A program made the translations under genes and the position numbers. Shown piece after piece: positions 19 through 13,919 of a DNA stretch of 64,000 bases; the stretch's first letter is position 1; every line of letters starts with the position of its first letter. A model generated the notes under the pieces. That model did no database searches. It was not told where the DNA came from and saw nothing but the letters and a program-made list of their open reading frames with translations. This DNA comes from Melioribacter roseus (GTDB lineage Bacteria > Bacteroidota > Ignavibacteria > Ignavibacteriales > Melioribacteraceae): contig DYLK01000008.1 in the NCBI GenBank assembly GCA_020722065.1, forward strand, positions 2,719 to 66,718, in the 5' to 3' direction.

Positions 19-393
19 ATGAAAAAAATACTATTAAATATCACAAATCACCCATCAGAAAAATGGGAAAATGCTCAAAAAGAGCAAGCTACTCAAAATT
101 ATGGCGAAATTATTGATATACCTTTTCCAAATATTTCTCCTGAATTAGATACAAGCGAAGTAGCTGAAATCGCAAAAGAATATTTAGGAAAGGTTAAAGA
201 AATACAGAAAAATAATTTAGTCACAGTCCACTTGATGGGAGAATTTACTTTTACGTTTTTGCTTACAAATTTGCTCATTTCAGAAGGAATTGAGGTAATT
301 TGCTCGACAACCAAACGGAGAATAGTTGAAGAGGGAAATAAGAAAATTTCAGTTTTCTCGTTCGTAAGGTTCAGAAGCTATCAAAATAAGTAA
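19..393 (+). CDS. Csx20-like small protein (putative CRISPR-ancillary family, orphan)
   Basis: This 124-residue soluble protein has no signal peptide or membrane segment. The start is set at the ATG of MKKILLN; an in-frame GTG lies 15 nt upstream. Its layout recalls the Csx20 family of type III CRISPR ancillary proteins as I remember it. That layout is a short Rossmann-like N-terminal strand followed by a NH turn (LNITNHP), a middle helix, a strand ending in a G-[DE]-F-x-x-T/A-F-like motif (HLMGEFTFTF), then a T-T-x-R-R-x-V-E-E motif (STTKRRIVEE), and a closing HVRFRxY-like tail (FVRFRSYQ). Csx15/16/20-type proteins have been linked to cyclic oligoadenylate turnover, but that function is inference here. 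There is no cas gene or repeat array in the window, so it is an orphan or sits at the edge of a locus to the left. Similarity is judged by eye only. Confidence 0.45.
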   Translation: MKKILLNITNHPSEKWENAQKEQATQNYGEIIDIPFPNISPELDTSEVAEIAKEYLGKVKEIQKNNLVTVHLMGEFTFTFLLTNLLISEGIEVICSTTKRRIVEEGNKKISVFSFVRFRSYQNK

Positions 394-476: not shown

Positions 477-1679
477 ATGGAAAAATTATTTAAGTTTCAA
501 AGTAAAAATGAAGACACAAATAACTTAACTGAAAGCATAAATAAAAATACAATTGATATTGAAGTGAAAGGATTTCGCGATGCTGGAGCTGCTGGCGGAG
601 AAATTGCAATTTTCACAAATAATCTAAATAGCATTTATTCTAGCTTAAATGCTACGCACGAGGAAAATTCAAATGAAGAAAATCATAAAAACACTAAGCG
701 AGAATTAGAAATTGAGAAATTAGAAAAATTACAAGAAAAGAAAAGGCAACAAATTACCACTCTTGAAACCCGCGATATTCCAGAAATTGAAAGTCAAATT
801 GACAAAGTAAGAAAAGAAGTAAAGGATATTAAGTTAAACCCCGATAAATACACTCAAAAAACTACAGATTCATTAAAGATGTTTATTGTTGCAGGTATAT
901 TAATAGGATTAACAATTTATTTGTGGTTTTTTTACGGAAGTGTAGCTTTTTCAGCCTTTTTTAGAGAAATAACATTCACAAAAAATTCTATTTTTAATAC
1001 AATATTTTATGCAGGTGCGTGGAGTGAAGCTTGGCAATCAGGCTTTACGGCTTTATTGATTATTTTGTTTATTCCATTCGTCTTTTTGGCACTTGGAATC
1101 TTGGTCCACATTTTCCAAGAACCAGAAAACAGAAAGAAATATTTACTCCCTATTGTTTATCTATTTTCTTTTCTGTTTGATTGTTTACTTGCTTATGAAA
1201 TTACTCAGAAAATTTATGAAGCAAAAGCTCTTAATTCATTTACAAACTTAAAACCGTATTCTATTCAAGAAGCAATATTTGATATAAATTTCTGGATTAT
1301 TATTGCCTCTGGTTTTGTGGTCTATATTGTCTGGGGTTATTTGTTTAATTATTATCAGGAACAAAGAAGTTATTCGAATAAAATAAATCGTCTTTTAAGT
1401 CAAAAGAATCATGAAATAACCGATTTAAAGAACGAACTTTCAAACATTTCCCAAAAGAAAATAAATCTTGAAAATGAATTGAATGAACTCGAACGACAAT
1501 CAATTTCTTTAACTGATAAAAATTTTACACCTGAACATAAATATCAAATAATTACGGTTTTTTATCAATATGCAAACGGTTGGTTGAATTTCTTGTCATC
1601 TGGGAAATTTAATCCCTCATCAATTCAAGAAATAAAAGAGATAACTGAAAGCTATATCGAAAGGATAAAAAATGATTAA
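477..1679 (+). CDS. Coiled-coil four-helix membrane protein of unknown function
   Basis: I do not recognise a named family for this 400-residue protein. The N-terminal ~70 residues are polar. A highly charged coiled coil runs from about 74 to 118. Four hydrophobic segments follow at about 135-161, 190-213, 222-243 and 272-293. A second coiled coil follows at about 294-345, and the C-terminal tail is soluble. There is no signal peptide, so both coiled coils should be cytoplasmic if the helices form two hairpins. The gene overlaps the next one by 8 nt, which implies coupled translation with the VWA-like lipoprotein. Such sensor-scaffold architecture fits a membrane-associated stress or defence module, but nothing in the sequence proves a role. 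Confidence 0.7.
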   Translation: MEKLFKFQSKNEDTNNLTESINKNTIDIEVKGFRDAGAAGGEIAIFTNNLNSIYSSLNATHEENSNEENHKNTKRELEIEKLEKLQEKKRQQITTLETRDIPEIESQIDKVRKEVKDIKLNPDKYTQKTTDSLKMFIVAGILIGLTIYLWFFYGSVAFSAFFREITFTKNSIFNTIFYAGAWSEAWQSGFTALLIILFIPFVFLALGILVHIFQEPENRKKYLLPIVYLFSFLFDCLLAYEITQKIYEAKALNSFTNLKPYSIQEAIFDINFWIIIASGFVVYIVWGYLFNYYQEQRSYSNKINRLLSQKNHEITDLKNELSNISQKKINLENELNELERQSISLTDKNFTPEHKYQIITVFYQYANGWLNFLSSGKFNPSSIQEIKEITESYIERIKND

Positions 1680-2547
1680 AAGTCTTATTTTGATATTTGT
1701 AATAGTTTTATTTGCTTTATCTTGCACTGAAAACAAAAAGAATGAAAATGCAGATGAATACAAACAACTGAATCTCACCATTTTGTTGGATTTGTCGGAT
1801 AGAATTGTTCAAAAGAACCAACCAACCCAAATCGAAAAAGATATAAAATCCATAATGGCAGTTGTTCAATTTTTTAAGAATCAAATTGCAGAGAAAGGCA
1901 CTTATAATTCAAATGATAAAATACGAGTACTTTTCTATCCACAAATAAGTGATTCAAAAATCCCAGAAATTGCACAAAATCTAAATATTGACTTGGAAAA
2001 ATTAAGTACAAGAAGTAAAAAGCAAATCTTCACAGAAATAGATACAATTTTTTCAAAAAATCTATTACAATTATATCGAATTGCAACAACACAAAGTGTT
2101 TTCAAAGGTTCTGATTTATATAACTTCTTCAAATATAGAGTTGAAGATGATTGCATCATTAAAGACAAAAACACAAAAAACATTCTTCTCGTTTATACTG
2201 ATGGCTATCTATTCTCAGCAAACCAACAAATTTCAGACTCAAACAGATATACTTTTATTGCTCCAAGATCAAAACATATCTCAATTTTTAGGAATAATCC
2301 TAATTGGGAAAATGAGTTTGTGGAAGGGAATTATGGCTTTTTAAGTGTCGATAAAGATTTATCAAATTTGAAAATAATAATGTTGGAATTCGCTCCAATT
2401 GAAGAATATCCACGAGATTTCGAGATTTTAAGAAAATACTGGGAAAAATGGTTAACAGAAATGAAGGTTGAAAATGTAAAATTTCTAAAATCGGACTTAC
2501 CTTCAACAAACAATTCAATACTTGAGAAATATTTACAAGAATTATAA
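1672..2547 (+). CDS. VWA-like lipoprotein of unknown function
   Basis: This is a 291-residue lipoprotein. The signal peptide ends in the lipobox FALSC with Cys18 as the lipidated residue. The mature part looks like a von Willebrand A fold. A strand runs into DLSDR (D40, S42), resembling a MIDAS DxSxS with the last Ser replaced by Arg. A GSD turn lies near 147-149, and a strand ends in YTDG (T177, D178). The MIDAS is therefore partial and metal binding is uncertain. The gene starts inside the end of the coiled-coil membrane protein gene (8-nt overlap), and the small basic protein follows 10 nt after the stop. The three probably form one unit. The product should be tethered to the inner or outer membrane facing the periplasm; partner binding is inference. 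Confidence 0.65.
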   Translation: MIKSLILIFVIVLFALSCTENKKNENADEYKQLNLTILLDLSDRIVQKNQPTQIEKDIKSIMAVVQFFKNQIAEKGTYNSNDKIRVLFYPQISDSKIPEIAQNLNIDLEKLSTRSKKQIFTEIDTIFSKNLLQLYRIATTQSVFKGSDLYNFFKYRVEDDCIIKDKNTKNILLVYTDGYLFSANQQISDSNRYTFIAPRSKHISIFRNNPNWENEFVEGNYGFLSVDKDLSNLKIIMLEFAPIEEYPRDFEILRKYWEKWLTEMKVENVKFLKSDLPSTNNSILEKYLQEL

Positions 2548-2557
2548 GGAAGTTAAA

Positions 2558-2710
2558 GTGAAAATTAATAAAATAAGAAGTCTGCTTTACACTGGTGCAA
2601 AAATTTTAGGCGATGTAAATGCTATTCAAAAAGGTAATATTTTACAAAGAATCGTTAATCGAATACTTGGTAGGATGATAGGTAAAATATTTGGTAAAAT
2701 TAAAATGTAA
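2558..2710 (+). CDS. Small cationic amphipathic protein
   Basis: This is a 50-residue product from a GTG start, preceded by a good ribosome site AAGGAAG 5 nt upstream. An earlier in-frame TTG at 2522 lies inside the VWA-like gene and has no such site. The N-terminal half reads like a conserved core (KIRSLLYTGAKILGDVNAIQKG). The C-terminal half is a run of Arg/Lys-Gly-hydrophobic steps (ILGRMIGKIFGKIK), giving a positively charged amphipathic helix with small-residue spacing. I have a vague recollection of similar short basic proteins in other bacteria and archaea, but cannot name the family. It is the last gene of the three-gene module. Possible roles include membrane interaction or nucleic acid binding; both are inference. 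Confidence 0.6.
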   Translation: MKINKIRSLLYTGAKILGDVNAIQKGNILQRIVNRILGRMIGKIFGKIKM

Positions 2711-2768: not shown

Positions 2769-2825
2769 TCAAAAAAAAGGCTTTAGCCACATTATTCAAA
2801 TGATACTAAAGCCTTAACTTTTTTA
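2769..2825. terminator. Bidirectional intrinsic terminator
   Basis: Perfect 10-bp arms AAGGCTTTAG (2777-2786) and CTAAAGCCTT (2806-2815) flank a 19-nt loop. A T-rich run follows on the plus strand, and a run of A before it gives a T-run on the minus strand. It ends the 477-2710 module and the converging gap-pgk transcript. Confidence 0.85.
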
Positions 2826-6862: not shown

Positions 6863-9100
6863 ATGAAATCGTCAAAAAATATAGGTTTTACTCTTTTACT
6901 AATTCAGTTGTTTTTACTCATATTTACAAATTTATCGTTTTCGCAATTTAACGAATGGAAAAATTATACTTCCCTAAATTCTACTTCGGATTTTACATTC
7001 TATGAAGATAATATTTGGGTAACAACCAATGGCGGTTTGTATAAATTTAATAAAACCGATAGTACATATTCAGTATTTAGGAAAACAGAAGGTTTAAAAA
7101 GTCAAGTTTTGACAGCAATTGCAATTTCAAATAAGGGAAATATTTGGATCGGAAGTCAAGAAGGGTACATTATCGTAATGAATCAAAATGGGGAAATATT
7201 GAAAAATATTTTCGACATCTACAATTTTGATAATGAACAAAAAAGGATAAATAGCATAAGAATTTCTGGCGATTCTGTTCTTGTAGCGTACGATTTTGGA
7301 ATTTCAATACTTTCGGACAATTCACTCGAATTTATTGAAACTGCAATGAAATTTGGTGATTTTAATATGAAATCTAAAGTGAATTATGCTGAAAAAATTG
7401 ATGGTAAAATTTGTCTCGCAAATGTTGAAGGAATTGCAATTCAGAAAGCAAATACATCAACAATTTCTGACCCAGAAAGTTGGGATTCTTTCCCAATTAC
7501 AACATCTTCTTCTGCTCCAATTGCCTTTAAACTTACCAAGTTTGGCTCAAAAACTTATATTTCAACCGAAAATGGTCTTTACTTTTATGAAAATGGAATT
7601 GTAACATATTTGGCATTTTCTGGCTATTCACTATCTGATATTTCTGTTTATGAAAATGAACTTTATGTGGCAATTGGTAAGAAATTATACAAAATGCAGA
7701 ATTCTGAATTTATAGTTGCTGAGCAACTGACAACTAATATTATAAAATTCAATTTGCAATCGGAGGAAAATTACTTTGCTACAAGCGAAGGTTTGTATTT
7801 CATAAATCCAACATTATCTGAAATAATTTTTCCTAACGGACCAACTACAAATCTATTTAATAGCATTTCGGTTGATGGCGATGGAATTGTTTGGGTTGGA
7901 AGTGGCGATGATACTTTTGGGCGTGGAATATATAAATTTGACGGTGAAAATTGGACAATTTATAATAAATCCAACCAAGATTTTTATAGTAATTCTTATC
8001 ATAATGTTTATGCCGCTAAAAGTGGCACAAAATATTTTAATAATTGGGGCTATGGTTTTACAACTTTGCAAAATGGTAACTTCAAAAATTTCACAACAAG
8101 CAACACAAGTTTAGTCGGAATTACAACAGCCCCAAATTTTCTTGTTATTTCCAATTCAAAAGAAGATAATGCTGGTAATTTATGGGTTCTGAATTATTGG
8201 TCAGCCGAACATAAACCTTTAAGCGTTATGAAAAGTGATAGTAGTTGGGTTCATTTTGAACCACAAAATATTTCTATTTCTGATGAAGATAGGTTCGATC
8301 AATTGATTATCGACCAAAATGGCACTAAATGGTTTGGGATGTTTATTGGGAATAATGGACTTTTTTATTTTAATGATAATAATTCGATCGACAATTTGAA
8401 TGACGATACTTGGGGAATCTTAACAACTTCCGATGGATTATCTGGTCCAGTTATTCAAGCTCTTGCTTTGGATAATTATGGACAACTTTGGATTGGAACA
8501 AATTCTGGCGTAAATATCATATCAGACCCAAGTTATCCTGAGGTAATTTCAGAAGTTTATGCACTTAAAAATTTTAACGTAACTTCAATTTATGTCGATC
8601 CATTAAATAGAAAGTGGATTGGCACAAGTGACGGAATTTATTACGTATCGAGTGATGGATTTACCGTTTATGCTCAATTTGATTCAAAAAATTCACCATT
8701 AGCAACAAATTCAATTCTTTCAATTGGATACGATGAAAAAAATGGAATTGCTTATTTTGCATCGGATTTTGGAATGTCATCACTCTCAACCGAAGCAATT
8801 TTACCGAAAAGCACATTTTCAGAAATATCAACTTATCCAGCACCATTTGTGCTTTCCAAAAATGAAAATCTAACAATAGATGGTTTGATTGCTAATTCAC
8901 AAGTTAAAATTTTTGATATTACTGGAAATTTAATTAATTCAAGTGAAGAAGGGACTATTTATTCGCCTGGTGGAAGAGTCGCGATTTGGGATGGGAAAAA
9001 AGCAAACGGCGAAAAAGTAGATAGCGGAATTTACCTTGTTGTTGCATATAATTCTGAAGGGAAAGAGATTTCTGTAACAAAAATCGCAGTACTAAAATAG
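6863..9100 (+). CDS. porZ: PorZ-like T9SS beta-propeller protein
   Basis: This is a 745-residue exported protein with an N-terminal signal peptide ending at about residue 28 (LSFSQF). The body consists of repeated two-component-regulator-type propeller blades with motifs such as NIWIGSQEGYI, IVWVGSGDD, QLWIGTNSGV and KWIGTSDGIY. The C-terminal ~85 residues form a beta-sandwich with GxxVAIWDGKKANGEKVDSGIYLV, a gliding-motility/T9SS C-terminal-like fold. Length and layout match PorZ, a surface component of the T9SS attachment complex. A generic T9SS cargo with propellers is the alternative. It directly abuts the ABC-F gene with no gap. Confidence 0.65.
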   Translation: MKSSKNIGFTLLLIQLFLLIFTNLSFSQFNEWKNYTSLNSTSDFTFYEDNIWVTTNGGLYKFNKTDSTYSVFRKTEGLKSQVLTAIAISNKGNIWIGSQEGYIIVMNQNGEILKNIFDIYNFDNEQKRINSIRISGDSVLVAYDFGISILSDNSLEFIETAMKFGDFNMKSKVNYAEKIDGKICLANVEGIAIQKANTSTISDPESWDSFPITTSSSAPIAFKLTKFGSKTYISTENGLYFYENGIVTYLAFSGYSLSDISVYENELYVAIGKKLYKMQNSEFIVAEQLTTNIIKFNLQSEENYFATSEGLYFINPTLSEIIFPNGPTTNLFNSISVDGDGIVWVGSGDDTFGRGIYKFDGENWTIYNKSNQDFYSNSYHNVYAAKSGTKYFNNWGYGFTTLQNGNFKNFTTSNTSLVGITTAPNFLVISNSKEDNAGNLWVLNYWSAEHKPLSVMKSDSSWVHFEPQNISISDEDRFDQLIIDQNGTKWFGMFIGNNGLFYFNDNNSIDNLNDDTWGILTTSDGLSGPVIQALALDNYGQLWIGTNSGVNIISDPSYPEVISEVYALKNFNVTSIYVDPLNRKWIGTSDGIYYVSSDGFTVYAQFDSKNSPLATNSILSIGYDEKNGIAYFASDFGMSSLSTEAILPKSTFSEISTYPAPFVLSKNENLTIDGLIANSQVKIFDITGNLINSSEEGTIYSPGGRVAIWDGKKANGEKVDSGIYLVVAYNSEGKEISVTKIAVLK

Positions 9101-11050
9101 ATGATTTCAGTTCAAAATTTATCGATCCAATTTGGCGGGTATTCATTATTTGAAAATGCAAATTTTCAAATAAATCCAACTGATAGAATTGCTATTGTTG
9201 GCAATAACGGAAGCGGAAAAACCACTTTATTACGAATTATTGCAAAACAAGAACAGCCTGAAAGTGGAAATATTAGCATTCCAAAAGATTTTTCAATCGG
9301 TTATTTACCTCAAGAATTTTATGCTTTGCAAGGAAAATCGGTTTTTGAAGAAGTGAAATCTTCAGTTGTTCAGTACAATAAAATATTAATTCGCGAAGAA
9401 GAAATACGTAAAAAACTTGAACAAAATCCAAATCACGAAGAACAAAACAAACTAATTTTGGAATTTGGAGAACTTGAACATAAAAAAGAATTGATAGATT
9501 TTTATGAAATTGAATCAAGAATTAAGAAAATTCTTATGGGACTTGGGTTTTCAATCGCCGACTTTCACAAATTGACGGAAGAATTTTCTGGTGGTTGGCA
9601 AATGAGAATTCATCTTGCAAAATTGTTGATAGCCGAAAATGATTTGATAATGCTTGACGAACCGACAAATCATCTTGATATTTATTCATTGAAATGGTTA
9701 ATAAATTTTTTGGAATCATTCAAAGGTGCTTTGTTAATTGTTTCGCACGACAAATATTTTGTAAACAAAATAACAAGTAAAACACTTGAAATTGCCAATC
9801 AAAAAATTTCCATTTATAACGGGAAATACGATAAATACTTAGTTTACAAAGAAGAAAAAGAAATTGAATTACTTGCAAACAAAAAAAATCTCGAAAAAAA
9901 ACGAAAAGAATTAGAGAATTTTATTGAACGATTTCGTTATAAAGCTACAAAAGCAAAGCAAGTTCAAAGTAGAATAAAACAATTAGAAAAATTTGAAGAA
10001 ATTCAAATTGATGAAAAAGCTGGAAAAATTAGATTTCGCTTTCCAGATTCACCAAAATCGGGGACAATTCCAATTTCTGTGAAAAATTTATACAAATCTT
10101 ATTCTGATTTATCAGTTTTAGAAAACGTAAATTTTGAATTGCAAAAGGGTGAAAAAATTGGACTTTTGGGAATGAATGGCGCTGGTAAATCTACTTTTGC
10201 AAGAATTTTAGCAGGAATCGAGGAATTTGATTCAGGCGAAAAATATGTAAATCCACTTACAGAAATAGCCTATTTTTCTCAAGATGTAACTGATAATCTT
10301 AATTTGGAAAGTGATTTATTGGACACGATGCTCGAAGAAAATGAAGATTTCACAATTCCACAACTTCGCTCAATTCTTGGCTCTTTCCTTTTTACAGATG
10401 ACGATATTTTCAAAAAAGTATCAATGCTTTCTGGTGGCGAAAAAAGTAGATTAACTCTTGCCAAAATGCTCTTGAGAAAATCAAATTTGTTAATTCTTGA
10501 TGAACCAACAAATCATCTTGATATAAATTCTAAAAATGTACTTCAACAAGCGATTATTGATTATTCTGGTTCAGTTTTAATTGTTTCTCACGATATAGAA
10601 TTTCTTCGTCCAATTGTAGGGAAAATTTTGGATTTTCGCGAAAGAAATGCGAAATTGATTTACGGTGGAATTGATTATTATCTTGAAAAATATTTTGACG
10701 AAAACGTAAAAAATGAGGCGAATAATACAGAAATAGATAAAAATAAAAAGAAATTACGAAAGCGAAATGAAGCGGAAATTCGTCAAAGAAAATATACAGC
10801 AACAAAAAAGATAAAAGCCGAAATTGAGCATATTGAAGAACTAATTTCACAATTGGAAGAAAAAATCAGGCAAAATGAATTAGAAATGATGAATCCCGAA
10901 AATTTCTCGATTGGCGAAAAAGTAAAATCTATTCAAAAAAGTTATTCGGAAAATAAAAATAATCTTGAACAACAAGTAGAAAAATGGGCGGAATTGAATT
11001 CAGAAATGGAAAAAATTATTAAAAATATAGAAGAAGAGTACAGCTCGTAA
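9101..11050 (+). CDS. ABC-F family ATPase
   Basis: This 649-residue soluble protein has two fused ABC ATPase domains and no membrane segment, typical of ABC-F ribosome-associated factors (Uup/YheS/EttA group). Walker A motifs are GNNGSGKTT (~34-42) and GMNGAGKST (~362-370). Signature motifs are FSGGWQMR and LSGGEKSR, and both Walker B motifs read LDEPTNHLDI. The lysine-rich linker at ~245-310 is the P-site tRNA interaction motif region. A C-terminal charged coiled coil (~555-645) resembles the Uup/YheS tail. It starts on the base after the stop of the PorZ-like gene. Confidence 0.92.
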   Translation: MISVQNLSIQFGGYSLFENANFQINPTDRIAIVGNNGSGKTTLLRIIAKQEQPESGNISIPKDFSIGYLPQEFYALQGKSVFEEVKSSVVQYNKILIREEEIRKKLEQNPNHEEQNKLILEFGELEHKKELIDFYEIESRIKKILMGLGFSIADFHKLTEEFSGGWQMRIHLAKLLIAENDLIMLDEPTNHLDIYSLKWLINFLESFKGALLIVSHDKYFVNKITSKTLEIANQKISIYNGKYDKYLVYKEEKEIELLANKKNLEKKRKELENFIERFRYKATKAKQVQSRIKQLEKFEEIQIDEKAGKIRFRFPDSPKSGTIPISVKNLYKSYSDLSVLENVNFELQKGEKIGLLGMNGAGKSTFARILAGIEEFDSGEKYVNPLTEIAYFSQDVTDNLNLESDLLDTMLEENEDFTIPQLRSILGSFLFTDDDIFKKVSMLSGGEKSRLTLAKMLLRKSNLLILDEPTNHLDINSKNVLQQAIIDYSGSVLIVSHDIEFLRPIVGKILDFRERNAKLIYGGIDYYLEKYFDENVKNEANNTEIDKNKKKLRKRNEAEIRQRKYTATKKIKAEIEHIEELISQLEEKIRQNELEMMNPENFSIGEKVKSIQKSYSENKNNLEQQVEKWAELNSEMEKIIKNIEEEYSS

Positions 11051-11057
11051 TTGTTTA

Positions 11058-11089
11058 AAATAAAAAACCCGTCTTATAACAAAACGGGT
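11058..11089 (-). terminator. Intrinsic terminator for rpmB (also ends the ABC-F gene)
   Basis: ACCCGT (11067-11072) pairs with ACGGGT (11084-11089). On the minus strand the stem is followed by a run of T, fitting rpmB. On the plus strand only a weak T-rich tract follows. Confidence 0.75.
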
Positions 11090-11116
11090 AAAAATTTGAC
11101 CTAATTTTAATTAAAC

Positions 11117-11356
11117 TTATCTAACTTTTATCTGTTTTTCATTGATCATTTTCGCTAATTGAGCAGTTCCATTTTTAGCAATAGTTTTTAATGCACTTGT
11201 TGAAAGTTTAATTGTAACAAATTTATTTAATTCTTGTACCCAAATTCTTTTCTTTTGCAAATTTGGCAAAAATCTTCTGTTTGTTTTGTTATGTGCATGC
11301 GAAATACTACTTCCACTAATCGGTTTAACTCCAGTAATTTGGCACTTTCTTGACAT
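11117..11356 (-). CDS. rpmB: 50S ribosomal protein L28
   Basis: bL28 (79 residues) begins at MSRKCQITG, with ribosome site GGAGATAATT just upstream. An open frame extends 21 codons further but is not expected to be translated. The family hallmark opening (SRKCQITGVKPxxGxxxSHAHNKTNRRFLPNLQ) is present in pieces over residues 2-33. The tail is LSTSALKTIAKNG...K as usual. It lacks extra zinc cysteines. It is a single gene, convergent with the ABC-F gene. Confidence 0.96.
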   Translation of the reverse strand: MSRKCQITGVKPISGSSISHAHNKTNRRFLPNLQKKRIWVQELNKFVTIKLSTSALKTIAKNGTAQLAKMINEKQIKVR

Positions 11357-11513
11357 AATTATCTCCACATAAAAATATTTTAAGGTGCAAAGTATAAGAT
11401 AATTCCCATGAAAAAGCAAATTATTTACTAATCTTTATTCTACTTAAAATTAACTTAATTATTTGATTCACTTTTTCCTTATTTTTGAAATAAACAATTT
11501 GTAATATGGATTT

Positions 11514-13919
11514 ATGAAAAATATTAGAATAATTTTATTTTCATCATTTTTAAGCTTTATCTTACTTTATCCACAAAACAAATCAATTCATCAAAAAAAT
11601 TGGGAAGAAAAAAAAGCGGAAAAGTTAACCACTAACAAGGTTGAACCATTTCGGATATTTAATTCGAAGAATCAAAAATTGAGTAAAACAGTTTTTGGCT
11701 ATTTACCAGATTGGGAATATGTTTCGCAATCAAGTGAATATTTACGGTTGGATTTACTTACTCACATCGCAATTTTTGGCTTCACAACCGATGGAAATGG
11801 GAATCTCGAAAATCCACTTGCCTGGCCTTGGACAAATTTAATTACCCAAGCACATAATTCCAATGTGAAAATGATTATGACAGTTATCTCATTTGATTCG
11901 GATATTATTCATCAAATTTTAGTTGATGAAAATACTCAAAGCAATCTGATTTCTAATATTATTTCAATTATTCAACAAAATAATTTAGATGGTGTAAATA
12001 TTGATTTTGAAAATGTTTATGAAGAAGATAGAAATGATAATTTTGTGGGATTTTTGCAAAATCTAAAAAATAGTTTGGAGAATGATATTGAATTATCTTT
12101 CGCTTCTCCAGGTTGGAATTGGGGTGGGTGGAATTTTCAAGCAATTGCAGAAACGTGCGATTATCTTTTTTTGATGGAATATGATTATTATGGAGAATGG
12201 AGCGAATCTTCGGGACCAAGTGCTCCATTAATTGGCGATTGGATAAATATAACGCGATCTATAAATGAACAATACGCAAATATTGATAAATCAAAATTAA
12301 TTTTGGGCATTCCTTATTATGGTAATCATTGGGAAACGGCTAATTTGGATGAAAATGCAGACATTTTGCGATTTATTAATTCACCGCGTTATCGAGATAT
12401 AAAATCTGGGTTTGATTGGAATTCGAAAAAATGGTCAGATTATTTTTCAAATTCATTTTTCAGTTGGCAAGAAAATAATTCGCATCAAATTTGGTATGAT
12501 TCCAAACAATCACTTGAAGAAAAATATGATTTTGCGATTTCTCAGAATATGAAAGGAATTGGGATATGGGCTTTAGGTTTTGATGGAAATAGAACTGAAC
12601 TTTGGGATTTAATTAACCAAAAATTTGGAAATGGACAAATTCCCAAACCCGAACCACCAATTGCAGTTTTTATCAATCCAAATACAAAGCAATTAATTTT
12701 TGATTGTGATGATGAAAGTGCAACAAATTATTTAGTTTACTTTTATCAAGAAAATTCAGAAGTTGATTCGTTGGTAACAACTAAAAAAAATGTTGATATT
12801 TCTGGTATTTTACAAAACGAAGGGACGTATTATTTTTATGTAAAAAGTGCTAATTCAAGTGGAAATTCAAATAAATCGACGACAGTAGCAATCAAAAATG
12901 GTGAAAATTTTGAAAATCTGGTTATTGATGGATTTGATAATTATTATGGAAATAACAACAATTTTAACTATGTTGAAAAGTTTGGGAATTCTGCAAATTT
13001 CACTTTTGCAAGCACAAATAACGAAGCAGTAATCAGAAATTATTTGTCATTGGATGACTATATGCGGGTTTTTTGGTTTGTTGGTAACGAAGATCGGGGA
13101 ACAGAAACGTTCAACTTTCTTGAACAACAGAAAATTTCAGATTATATCGAATTAGTACAAAATTTTCAAGGAAAACATGCAATTTTTATAAATGGTAGCG
13201 AAATTGGATACGATTTGGCGGATACTACAAATTGGGCAACATTGCAAGATTTGACATTTTTCGAGAATGTATTGGCTGCAAAATATGTTTCAGATTCGCC
13301 TTTTGATGAAATGAATACGCATTTTTCATTTTCAAGCACGGATTCAGAATTTAATTTGGGAGGAGAAATCTTTTTTGATGATGGAAATTACGGAACTTAT
13401 TCTGTTTTATATCCCGATATTATTCAGCCAAATAACTCTTCGTCAATTTTTCAGATTAATGGAATAAGCTCAGAAAACGGAATTTGTGGAATTTCAAGAA
13501 AAAATGTTGATGAAAATTTTCATGCAAGATTTTTACTTTATTCAACAATCCCATTCGAAACAATTCGTACAGATAATGAAAGAGATGAATTTATTTCTGC
13601 ATTATATCAATATTTTGATTTCCCAATTTCGGTCGAAGATAATACAGAAATTCCTTTAGAATTTAAACTTTCTCAAAATTATCCAAATCCATTTAATCCA
13701 AATACTACAATTTCATATCAAATCCCACAGAATTCGTTTGTAAATTTGAAAATTTATGATGTCTTGGGAAATGAAATTGCAACTTTAGTAAATGAGCAAA
13801 AAAGTGCTGGGAAATATAAAGTGAAGTTTGAATTGAAAAATTTGAGTTCTGGAGTTTACTTCTACAAAATTCAAGCAAATAATTTTATCGAAATAAAGAA
13901 AATGATTTTAATTAAATAA
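11514..13919 (+). CDS. Secreted GH18-like glycoside hydrolase with T9SS sorting domain
   Basis: This 801-residue exported protein has a hydrophobic signal segment at ~5-20. Residues ~55-370 form a GH18 TIM barrel of the YaaH/chitinase-like type. It opens with VFGYLPDWE and carries the active-site strand DGVNIDFEN (D159-E166), with E166 as the likely proton donor. Asn replaces the second Asp of the strict DGxDxDxE pattern. Further motifs are LMEYDYYG and GIGIWALGFDG. A fibronectin-III-like segment and a linker follow. The last ~85 residues are a type A T9SS sorting domain (FKLSQNYPNPFNPNTTISY ... KKMILIK). Likely action is on chitin or peptidoglycan-type glycans outside the cell; the exact substrate is unknown. 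A candidate -7 element TATTTTTG lies at 11480-11487. Confidence 0.85.
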   Translation: MKNIRIILFSSFLSFILLYPQNKSIHQKNWEEKKAEKLTTNKVEPFRIFNSKNQKLSKTVFGYLPDWEYVSQSSEYLRLDLLTHIAIFGFTTDGNGNLENPLAWPWTNLITQAHNSNVKMIMTVISFDSDIIHQILVDENTQSNLISNIISIIQQNNLDGVNIDFENVYEEDRNDNFVGFLQNLKNSLENDIELSFASPGWNWGGWNFQAIAETCDYLFLMEYDYYGEWSESSGPSAPLIGDWINITRSINEQYANIDKSKLILGIPYYGNHWETANLDENADILRFINSPRYRDIKSGFDWNSKKWSDYFSNSFFSWQENNSHQIWYDSKQSLEEKYDFAISQNMKGIGIWALGFDGNRTELWDLINQKFGNGQIPKPEPPIAVFINPNTKQLIFDCDDESATNYLVYFYQENSEVDSLVTTKKNVDISGILQNEGTYYFYVKSANSSGNSNKSTTVAIKNGENFENLVIDGFDNYYGNNNNFNYVEKFGNSANFTFASTNNEAVIRNYLSLDDYMRVFWFVGNEDRGTETFNFLEQQKISDYIELVQNFQGKHAIFINGSEIGYDLADTTNWATLQDLTFFENVLAAKYVSDSPFDEMNTHFSFSSTDSEFNLGGEIFFDDGNYGTYSVLYPDIIQPNNSSSIFQINGISSENGICGISRKNVDENFHARFLLYSTIPFETIRTDNERDEFISALYQYFDFPISVEDNTEIPLEFKLSQNYPNPFNPNTTISYQIPQNSFVNLKIYDVLGNEIATLVNEQKSAGKYKVKFELKNLSSGVYFYKIQANNFIEIKKMILIK

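What the first reader, a model, noticed from the sequence alone, without database searches (positions are those of the whole stretch)
477..2710. Three-gene module: coiled-coil membrane protein, VWA-like lipoprotein, tiny cationic protein
The genes are overlapped or tightly spaced (8-nt overlap, then 10 nt). They have unrelated folds, no metabolic role, and sit between an orphan Csx20-like gene and a terminator. A membrane scaffold with cytoplasmic coiled coils, a periplasmic VWA-like partner and a membrane-active small protein would make a sensible sensor-adaptor-effector set. This is the most accessory-looking and least explained part of the window.
Basis: inference. Interest (0 to 1): 0.6.

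Follow-up and report, generated by a model that had tools for sequence, protein, structure and literature searches.

The report
Membrane–periplasm module linked to CRISPR
A pair of unnamed genes, an inner-membrane coiled-coil protein and a von Willebrand-type lipoprotein, often followed by a tiny cationic protein, recurs inside or beside type III CRISPR immune loci in a group of little-known bacteria, which suggests an immune arm that works at the cell envelope.

Summary
In detail: genes at 477-1679, 1672-2547 and 2558-2710, then a terminator. Protein 1 has four membrane helices and long coiled coils. Protein 2 is a lipoprotein with a VWA fold. Protein 3 has 50 aa, pI 11.6.

The membrane gene lies beside the lipoprotein gene in 29 of 30 loci; the exception is truncated. 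Two contexts exist. In 14 loci the pair follows a TerB gene, with no Cas10 found (Csm1 0 of 7, Cmr2 0 of 14 genomes tested). In the window's clade (16 genomes) four copies, with the small gene, lie inside type III CRISPR loci between CARF genes and cas1-cas2. Others sit beside Csx20, a weak Csx3-like match, CARF genes or a CRISPR array; five show no local link. Cas10 occurs in 12 of 16; Csx20, a cA4 ring-nuclease family, in 8 of 9 genomes with an intact close-clade module. The window has Csx20 directly upstream; its genome carries Csm1 on another contig.

Best reading: an envelope-facing ancillary module of cA4-signalling type III immunity, acting in cis or trans. No cA4-binding domain was recognised and CRISPR-free copies exist, so the mechanism is inferred. 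Defence link supported; sensor-adaptor-effector roles untested.

The parts
19..393 (+). csx20, family of cA4-degrading ring nucleases; 83 nt upstream of the module
   Evidence: PADLOC PDLC01397 E 2.5e-37; NCBIfam NF040559 37.6 bits, below its 70-bit cut-off. A Csx20 tested by others degrades cA4 (PMC12409355, passages read). Only PDLC01397 hit in this genome.
477..1679 (+). TM protein: four membrane helices (about 135-153, 192-210, 222-240, 267-285 aa), coiled coils before and after them, no named family
   Evidence: Hydropathy; AF2 model mean pLDDT 75.4, pTM 0.44, helices 43-120 and 270-347; no Pfam or NCBIfam match over its cut-off, PADLOC and PHROGs matches weak and coiled-coil-like
1672..2547 (+). 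lipoprotein: signal peptide with lipobox-like Cys18, then a VWA-like domain (about 30-291) with DxSDR, GSD and TDG motifs
   Evidence: AF2 mean pLDDT 73.1, pTM 0.76; Foldseek and VIA-align matches are mostly VWA domains, e.g. VWF A1 Z 11.7; motifs conserved
2558..2710 (+). small cationic protein, 50 aa, pI 11.6, GTG start, GD(V/I)NA motif
   Evidence: Homologs behind the lipoprotein in six other intact loci and one broken locus; 11 of 391 class genomes
2777..2815 (.). stem-loop with flanking A and T runs, likely bidirectional terminator shared with convergent pgk
   Evidence: Folding of 2765-2840 gives -15.4 kcal/mol, z -3.17

Best explanation
The TM protein and the VWA lipoprotein form a two-part envelope module that serves as an ancillary arm of cA4-signalling type III CRISPR immunity in this bacterial clade. 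In the window it acts in trans to a type III-A-like locus elsewhere in the genome. Shown here: near-strict pairing of the two genes; placement in or beside type III loci in several lineages; genome-level co-occurrence with Cas10, and presence of Csx20 in nearly all genomes with the intact close-clade module; VWA fold; four hydrophobic segments. Inferred: the VWA domain sits on the periplasmic face of the inner membrane and binds the two outer loops of the TM protein. On infection Cas10 makes cA4; a CARF partner (candidate: the NE0113/CARF5 protein, the CARF gene nearest the TM gene in the four in-locus cases), or the coiled-coil domain itself, changes the TM protein. The pair, possibly with the cationic peptide, then perturbs or guards the membrane, and Csx20 removes cA4 to switch the response off.
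For: In four genomes (G010, G684, G598, G567) the three genes lie co-directionally inside a type III locus, between CARF genes (Card1-type and NE0113 in all four, NE0113 split in two frames in G684; Csx1 in three) and cas1-cas2 (identities for G010 and by similarity to those for the others), with Csm1 or Cmr2 6-11 kb away. G186: next to Card1-type and NE0113 genes, with RT-Cas1, cas2 and Csm1 following. G694: TM gene next to a CRISPR array whose 24-nt repeat also ends the contig carrying its type III-A locus. G068: Csx20 with one gene between. G045: Csx3-like gene (E 7e-5, weak). Window: Csx20 upstream, ShosTA-like pair beyond it, Csm1 with GGDD on another contig. Csm1 over cut-off in 9 of 13 lipoprotein-positive against 39 of 378 other class genomes, Fisher p 1.5e-6. 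Cas10 (Csm1 or Cmr2) in 12 of 16 clade genomes. Csx20 in 8 of 9 genomes with an intact close-clade module, including two where the module is not beside CRISPR genes.
Against: No CARF, SAVED or other known cOA-binding domain recognised in any of the three proteins. By eye on the alignment, all regions of the TM protein in the CRISPR-linked clade align with the TerB-linked clade, so no CRISPR-specific sensor domain is apparent. The TerB-linked clade has the pair with no Csm1 (0 of 7 genomes) and no Cmr2 (0 of 14). G452 and G634 carry the module among housekeeping genes; G609, G646 and G294 also show no local link, and G068 and G294, both nearly complete genomes, have no Csm1 or Cmr2. The Fisher test ignores shared ancestry, and the four in-locus cases form one clade, so there are perhaps three or four independent placements. 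The background frequency of Csx20 in the class was not measured. The type III loci already hold other effectors.
Confidence: 0.52

Rival explanations
1. General envelope-stress module. The pair is a house stress system (coupled to TerB in its other clade) that monitors the envelope, and it sits near CRISPR only because accessory genes cluster.
For: TerB gene directly upstream of the pair in 14 of 14 loci of that clade (Pfam TerB over its cut-off for the one member scanned); no Csm1 in 7 of 7 and no Cmr2 in 14 of 14 of those genomes tested; housekeeping neighbours in G452 and G634.
Against: No TerB gene in the 14 clade-B loci searched. Genome-level association with Csm1 (p 1.5e-6) and presence of Csx20, also in trans. 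Placement inside the type III gene run with the same orientation in four genomes.
Confidence: 0.25
2. Stand-alone abortive-infection system: the VWA lipoprotein senses, the TM protein relays and the small protein kills, carried in defence islands.
For: ShosTA-like genes and Csx20 next door in the window; patchy distribution, 13 of 391 class genomes; cationic amphipathic small protein.
Against: No PADLOC match for the three proteins beyond weak ones (best E 0.0016). The small protein was not found in the 14 TerB-clade loci nor in 8 of 9 further clade-B loci searched in six frames, the hit being G045, and it occurs away from the module in G049, G433 and G452. The fullest contexts are CRISPR loci.
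Confidence: 0.13
3. Passenger of type III loci without immune function, kept by linkage.
For: The four in-locus cases form one clade; the window copy is on a different contig from its type III locus.
Against: Adjacency recurs in lineages as distant as G186 and G694; 29 of 30 loci keep both genes next to each other with conserved motifs.
Confidence: 0.08

Closest known systems
Type III CRISPR membrane effectors Cam1, Csx23, Cam2, Cam3, CorA
   Same: Membrane proteins encoded in type III loci, several shown or proposed to act on the membrane on second-messenger production (PMC11229360, passages and section 18 read; PMC11014256, abstract and outline read)
   Different: Cam1, Csx23 and Cam2 are described there as single proteins with a fused (known or proposed) ligand-binding domain. 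Here there are two genes, an exported VWA partner, no recognised cOA-binding domain, and relatives outside CRISPR.
vWA-MoxR-VMAP ternary systems linked to type III CRISPR (UAS-55, -64, -66) and other vWA-related CRISPR-linked systems
   Same: A VWA protein associated with CRISPR loci (PMC10910872, passages read)
   Different: The ternary systems combine vWA with MoxR and VMAP. I saw neither beside this module, by eye only, not by a search; and this VWA protein has an export signal. Whether one of that paper's vWA plus transmembrane groups is this family could not be checked, since its supplements were not open to me.
TerB-linked membrane systems
   Same: The pair's relatives in the other clade follow a TerB gene
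   Different: No TerB gene in the window printout or in the 14 clade-B loci searched.
Zorya ZorA
   Same: NCBIfam ZorA listed at E 0.43 for the coiled-coil part
   Different: 9.6 bits against a cut-off of 100; the partner here is a VWA lipoprotein.

Membership tests
VWA domain | Rossmann-like alpha/beta VWA fold | tested here: met
   AF2 model; Foldseek top matches mostly VWA/I domains, three at E below 0.001; VIA-align e.g. VWF A1 (1sq0_A) Z 11.7, rmsd 3.4 over 175 residues
VWA domain | Complete MIDAS motif DxSxS...T...D (motif recalled) | tested here: not met
   Sequence has DxSDR, G(S/A)D and TDG: first Asp and Ser and the last Asp conserved, third Ser replaced by Arg. Metal binding not testable.
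Type III CRISPR ancillary effector | Encoded inside type III loci | tested here: inconclusive
   True in G010, G684, G598, G567; adjacent in G186 and G694; not so for the window copy, whose Csm1 is on another contig
Type III CRISPR ancillary effector | CARF, SAVED or other known cOA-binding domain | tested here: not met
   No such match in Pfam, PADLOC or NCBIfam; fold comparison of the TM protein was uninformative
Type III CRISPR ancillary effector | Activation by cyclic oligoadenylate | not testable with these tools
   Needs biochemistry
Csx20 ring nuclease (window 19-393) | Match to Csx20 profiles | tested here: met
   PADLOC E 2.5e-37, but the NCBIfam equivalog model scores 37.6 bits, below its cut-off of 70
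Ter / TerB systems | TerB gene adjacent | tested here: not met
   Searched in 14 clade-B loci with the L038 TerB: none; 14 of 14 loci of the other clade have it. The window was judged from its ORF list only.
Zorya ZorA | Score over the NCBIfam ZorA cut-off | tested here: not met
   9.6 bits against 100

The most novel reading that the evidence does not exclude
A type III CRISPR output that crosses the inner membrane: intracellular cA4 signalling is relayed by a four-TM coiled-coil protein to a periplasmic, metal-site-like VWA domain (or the reverse, with envelope attack by phage feeding into type III immunity). It would be a two-component envelope arm related to a TerB-linked stress module.
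Probability: 0.22. Interest if true: 0.82.

Novelty: new variant of a known kind. Interest (0 to 1): 0.6.

Why it matters
The type III membrane effectors that I read about are single proteins with a sensor on the cytoplasmic side. A paired module with an exported VWA lipoprotein would extend CRISPR immunity to the far side of the membrane. It could also help account for loci that carry a ring nuclease but no known effector (31 such cases in PMC12409355, passage read). One published effector search concentrated on loci without a known effector (PMC11229360, section 18); three of the in-locus copies found here share their locus with Csx1 and all four with Card1-type genes, so that search would probably have passed them over (inference).

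Tried and rejected
Scans with the single lipoprotein sequence in viral contigs and genome contigs confirmed nothing; the alignment query, which used one peptide pattern, found four loci, all MAGs titled as Ignavibacteria groups. No match in the plasmid or phage collections, so a plasmid- or phage-borne origin is not supported. PDB sequence search of the lipoprotein gave only E 0.68 or worse. Fold search of the TM protein returned generic coiled coils with no E below 0.001, so no fold family is claimed; some rows are Tc-toxin chains and mean only long helices. Dropped before counting: weak lipoprotein hits in G138, G222, G424, G062, G234 and G204 (E 1e-6 to 1e-3), G329 (E 6e-7) and the second G567 hit; the weak TM hit in G040, a histidine-kinase-like protein by eye. 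The module is rare in G186's class (2 of 98 genomes, one of them the weak G329 hit) and found in 1 of 4 genomes of G068's class. Csx20 was sought genome-wide with one PADLOC profile only (1 of 14 control genomes rings); Csm1 rings in 7 of 14 controls, 3 over the cut-off, so only matches over the cut-off were counted.

Paper searches: none of the listed titles or abstract starts names a TM plus VWA-lipoprotein pair in type III loci. These cover only openly licensed PMC papers and no supplements, so this is not proof of absence. Papers: PMC12409355 and PMC10910872, passages; PMC11229360, passages and section 18; PMC11014256, abstract and outline; all others, search listing only.

I treat the three class draws (391 genomes each) as the same genomes because the listed handles agree; the tool does not state it. 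The tree was rooted on the TerB clade by my choice.

Full report
What is there. Three co-directional genes lie at 477-1679, 1672-2547 and 2558-2710, 83 nt behind a csx20 gene (19-393) and ahead of a likely terminator shared with convergent pgk. The window is G000:C13:2719-66718. Just upstream, across a run of N, the contig carries a HAD gene, a ShosT-like gene and a ShosA/DprA-like gene. The named relatives of the lipoprotein are MAGs titled Ignavibacteria, Ignavibacteriales, Ignavibacterium or Ignavibacteriaceae, and matching contig lengths place them in the window's class, so the host is probably of that class (inference).

The proteins. The 400-aa protein has four hydrophobic segments and, in an AF2 model built from only four sequences (mean pLDDT 75, pTM 0.44), long helices at 43-120 and 270-347; it has no named family. 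I infer both ends to be cytoplasmic from the even number of segments and the large charged end domains, with loops of about 38 and 26 aa outside. The 291-aa protein has a lipobox-like cysteine and a VWA fold (mean pLDDT 73, pTM 0.76, four sequences; Foldseek top hits mostly VWA or I domains; VIA Z 11 to 12). The MIDAS-type motif is incomplete (DxSDR). Of 23 sequences compared, window included, 21 have a lipobox-like cysteine. The other two (G068, G646) have a hydrophobic N-terminus without one at that place, which suggests tethering to the inner membrane. The 50-aa protein is strongly basic and conserved.

Pairing. Of 30 loci with a lipoprotein hit that I kept (21, 9), 29 have the TM gene adjacent, with spacing from overlap to 33 nt in the 23 measured. 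The exception is the truncated G052 copy. In G646 the TM gene is itself truncated.

Two contexts. In 14 of 14 loci of one clade a TerB gene directly precedes the pair. Pfam was run on one of these TerB proteins and confirmed it. Csm1 was absent in 7 of 7 and Cmr2 in 14 of 14 such genomes tested.

The other clade, to which the window belongs, is found in 16 genomes, 13 of the window's class and three of other classes of the phylum. Four (G010, G684, G598, G567) have the three genes inside a type III locus, between CARF genes and cas1-cas2. Card1-type and NE0113 genes are there in all four (NE0113 split in two frames in G684) and Csx1 in three; identities come from profile searches for G010 and from similarity to those proteins for the rest. 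In three of them Csx20 lies in that same stretch; in G010 it lies about 12 kb away, past Csm1. G186 has Card1-type and NE0113 genes next door, with RT-Cas1, cas2 and Csm1 following. In G694 the TM gene lies next to a CRISPR array whose 24-nt repeat also ends the contig bearing its type III-A locus. G068 has a Csx20 with one gene between and a repeat array about 16 kb away. G045 has a weakly matching Csx3-like gene. G045, G445 and G068 share a small gene whose homolog lies upstream of Csm1 in the window's own genome (modest E-values); this is G445's only link. G052 is a broken copy some 6 kb from a CARF-type gene. G452, G634, G646, G609 and G294 show no local CRISPR link; for G646 and G609 the contigs are short.

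Genome-level test. Csm1 over its cut-off occurs in 48 of 391 class genomes, among them 9 of the 13 with the lipoprotein: Fisher p 1.5e-6, not corrected for ancestry. With Cmr2 added, 12 of the 16 clade genomes have a Cas10. The four without are G445 (88% complete), G646 (77%), G068 (98%) and G294 (99%). Csx20 by one profile occurs in 9 of 16. Among the nine genomes with an intact close-clade module (G000, G010, G684, G598, G567, G045, G445, G452, G634) it is absent only from G445. G452 and G634, whose module is not beside CRISPR genes, still carry Cas10 and Csx20 elsewhere, as the window's genome carries Csm1 elsewhere. This trans pattern is the strongest argument against mere clustering, although the Csx20 background was not measured.

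The small protein. It is found in 11 of 391 class genomes. Nine of these also carry the lipoprotein: seven in intact three-gene loci (in G634 with one gene between), one behind the broken lipoprotein of G052, and one (G452) elsewhere in the genome. G049 and G433 carry it without the lipoprotein. It was not found in the 14 loci of the TerB clade. It is an optional partner, not part of the core pair.

Mechanism. Shown: pairing, fold, hydropathy, association. Inferred: contact of the VWA domain with the outer loops; activation downstream of cA4, perhaps through the NE0113 protein; switching off by Csx20. A Csx20 tested by others degrades cA4 (PMC12409355, passages read). The window's genome has Csm1 with GGDD and two Card1-type genes, so cA4-type signalling is plausible there. 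No known cOA-binding domain was recognised in the module, and no part of the TM protein looks unique to the CRISPR-linked clade. A direct sensor role is therefore less likely than use of a general envelope module.

Verdict. The finding is better described as an envelope module recurrently tied to type III CRISPR. Interest 0.6: a specialist would find an exported VWA partner in type III loci surprising, and the proposal is directly testable, but the link rests on perhaps three or four independent placements.

Noticed in passing
L113 (G000:C41) 8404-11929: Four unannotated genes (163, 351, 292, 373 aa) just upstream of Csm1 in the window's own genome; the 163-aa one recurs beside the TM-VWA pair in G045, G445 and G068, and the 373-aa one has a relative in G068. 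By eye one looks sigma-factor-like and one Lon-like; this was not tested.
   Followed up: partly
L002 123-2439, upstream of the window: HAD gene, ShosT-like gene and ShosA/DprA-like gene (PADLOC E 5e-8 and 4e-48 for the last two) directly ahead of csx20: a small defence cluster.
   Followed up: partly
L002 about 2600-2740, just before window position 1: A run of N flanked on both sides by the start of csx20: looks like an unmerged scaffold overlap, so the exact sequence ahead of csx20 is uncertain.
   Followed up: no
L038-L050 and L052: TerB, TM protein and VWA lipoprotein in a row in 14 loci, often near a response-regulator-like gene, a TPR-like gene and other small unnamed proteins, judged by eye: an unnamed operon of its own.
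   Followed up: partly
L134 9129-9281; L135 8655-8807; G049:C1:1452805-1452954: Copies of the small GD(V/I)NA protein away from the module; in G433 and G452 they lie next to a TonB-receptor-like gene and near a D-Ala-D-Ala dipeptidase-like gene, judged by eye.
   Followed up: partly
L010, L076, L077, L079: The NE0113/CARF5 protein is the CARF gene nearest the TM gene in all four in-locus cases, with an ARPP-1-like gene (by eye) between in G567: candidate partner.
   Followed up: no
L086 3808-6018: RT-Cas1 fusion in the type III locus of G186.
   Followed up: no
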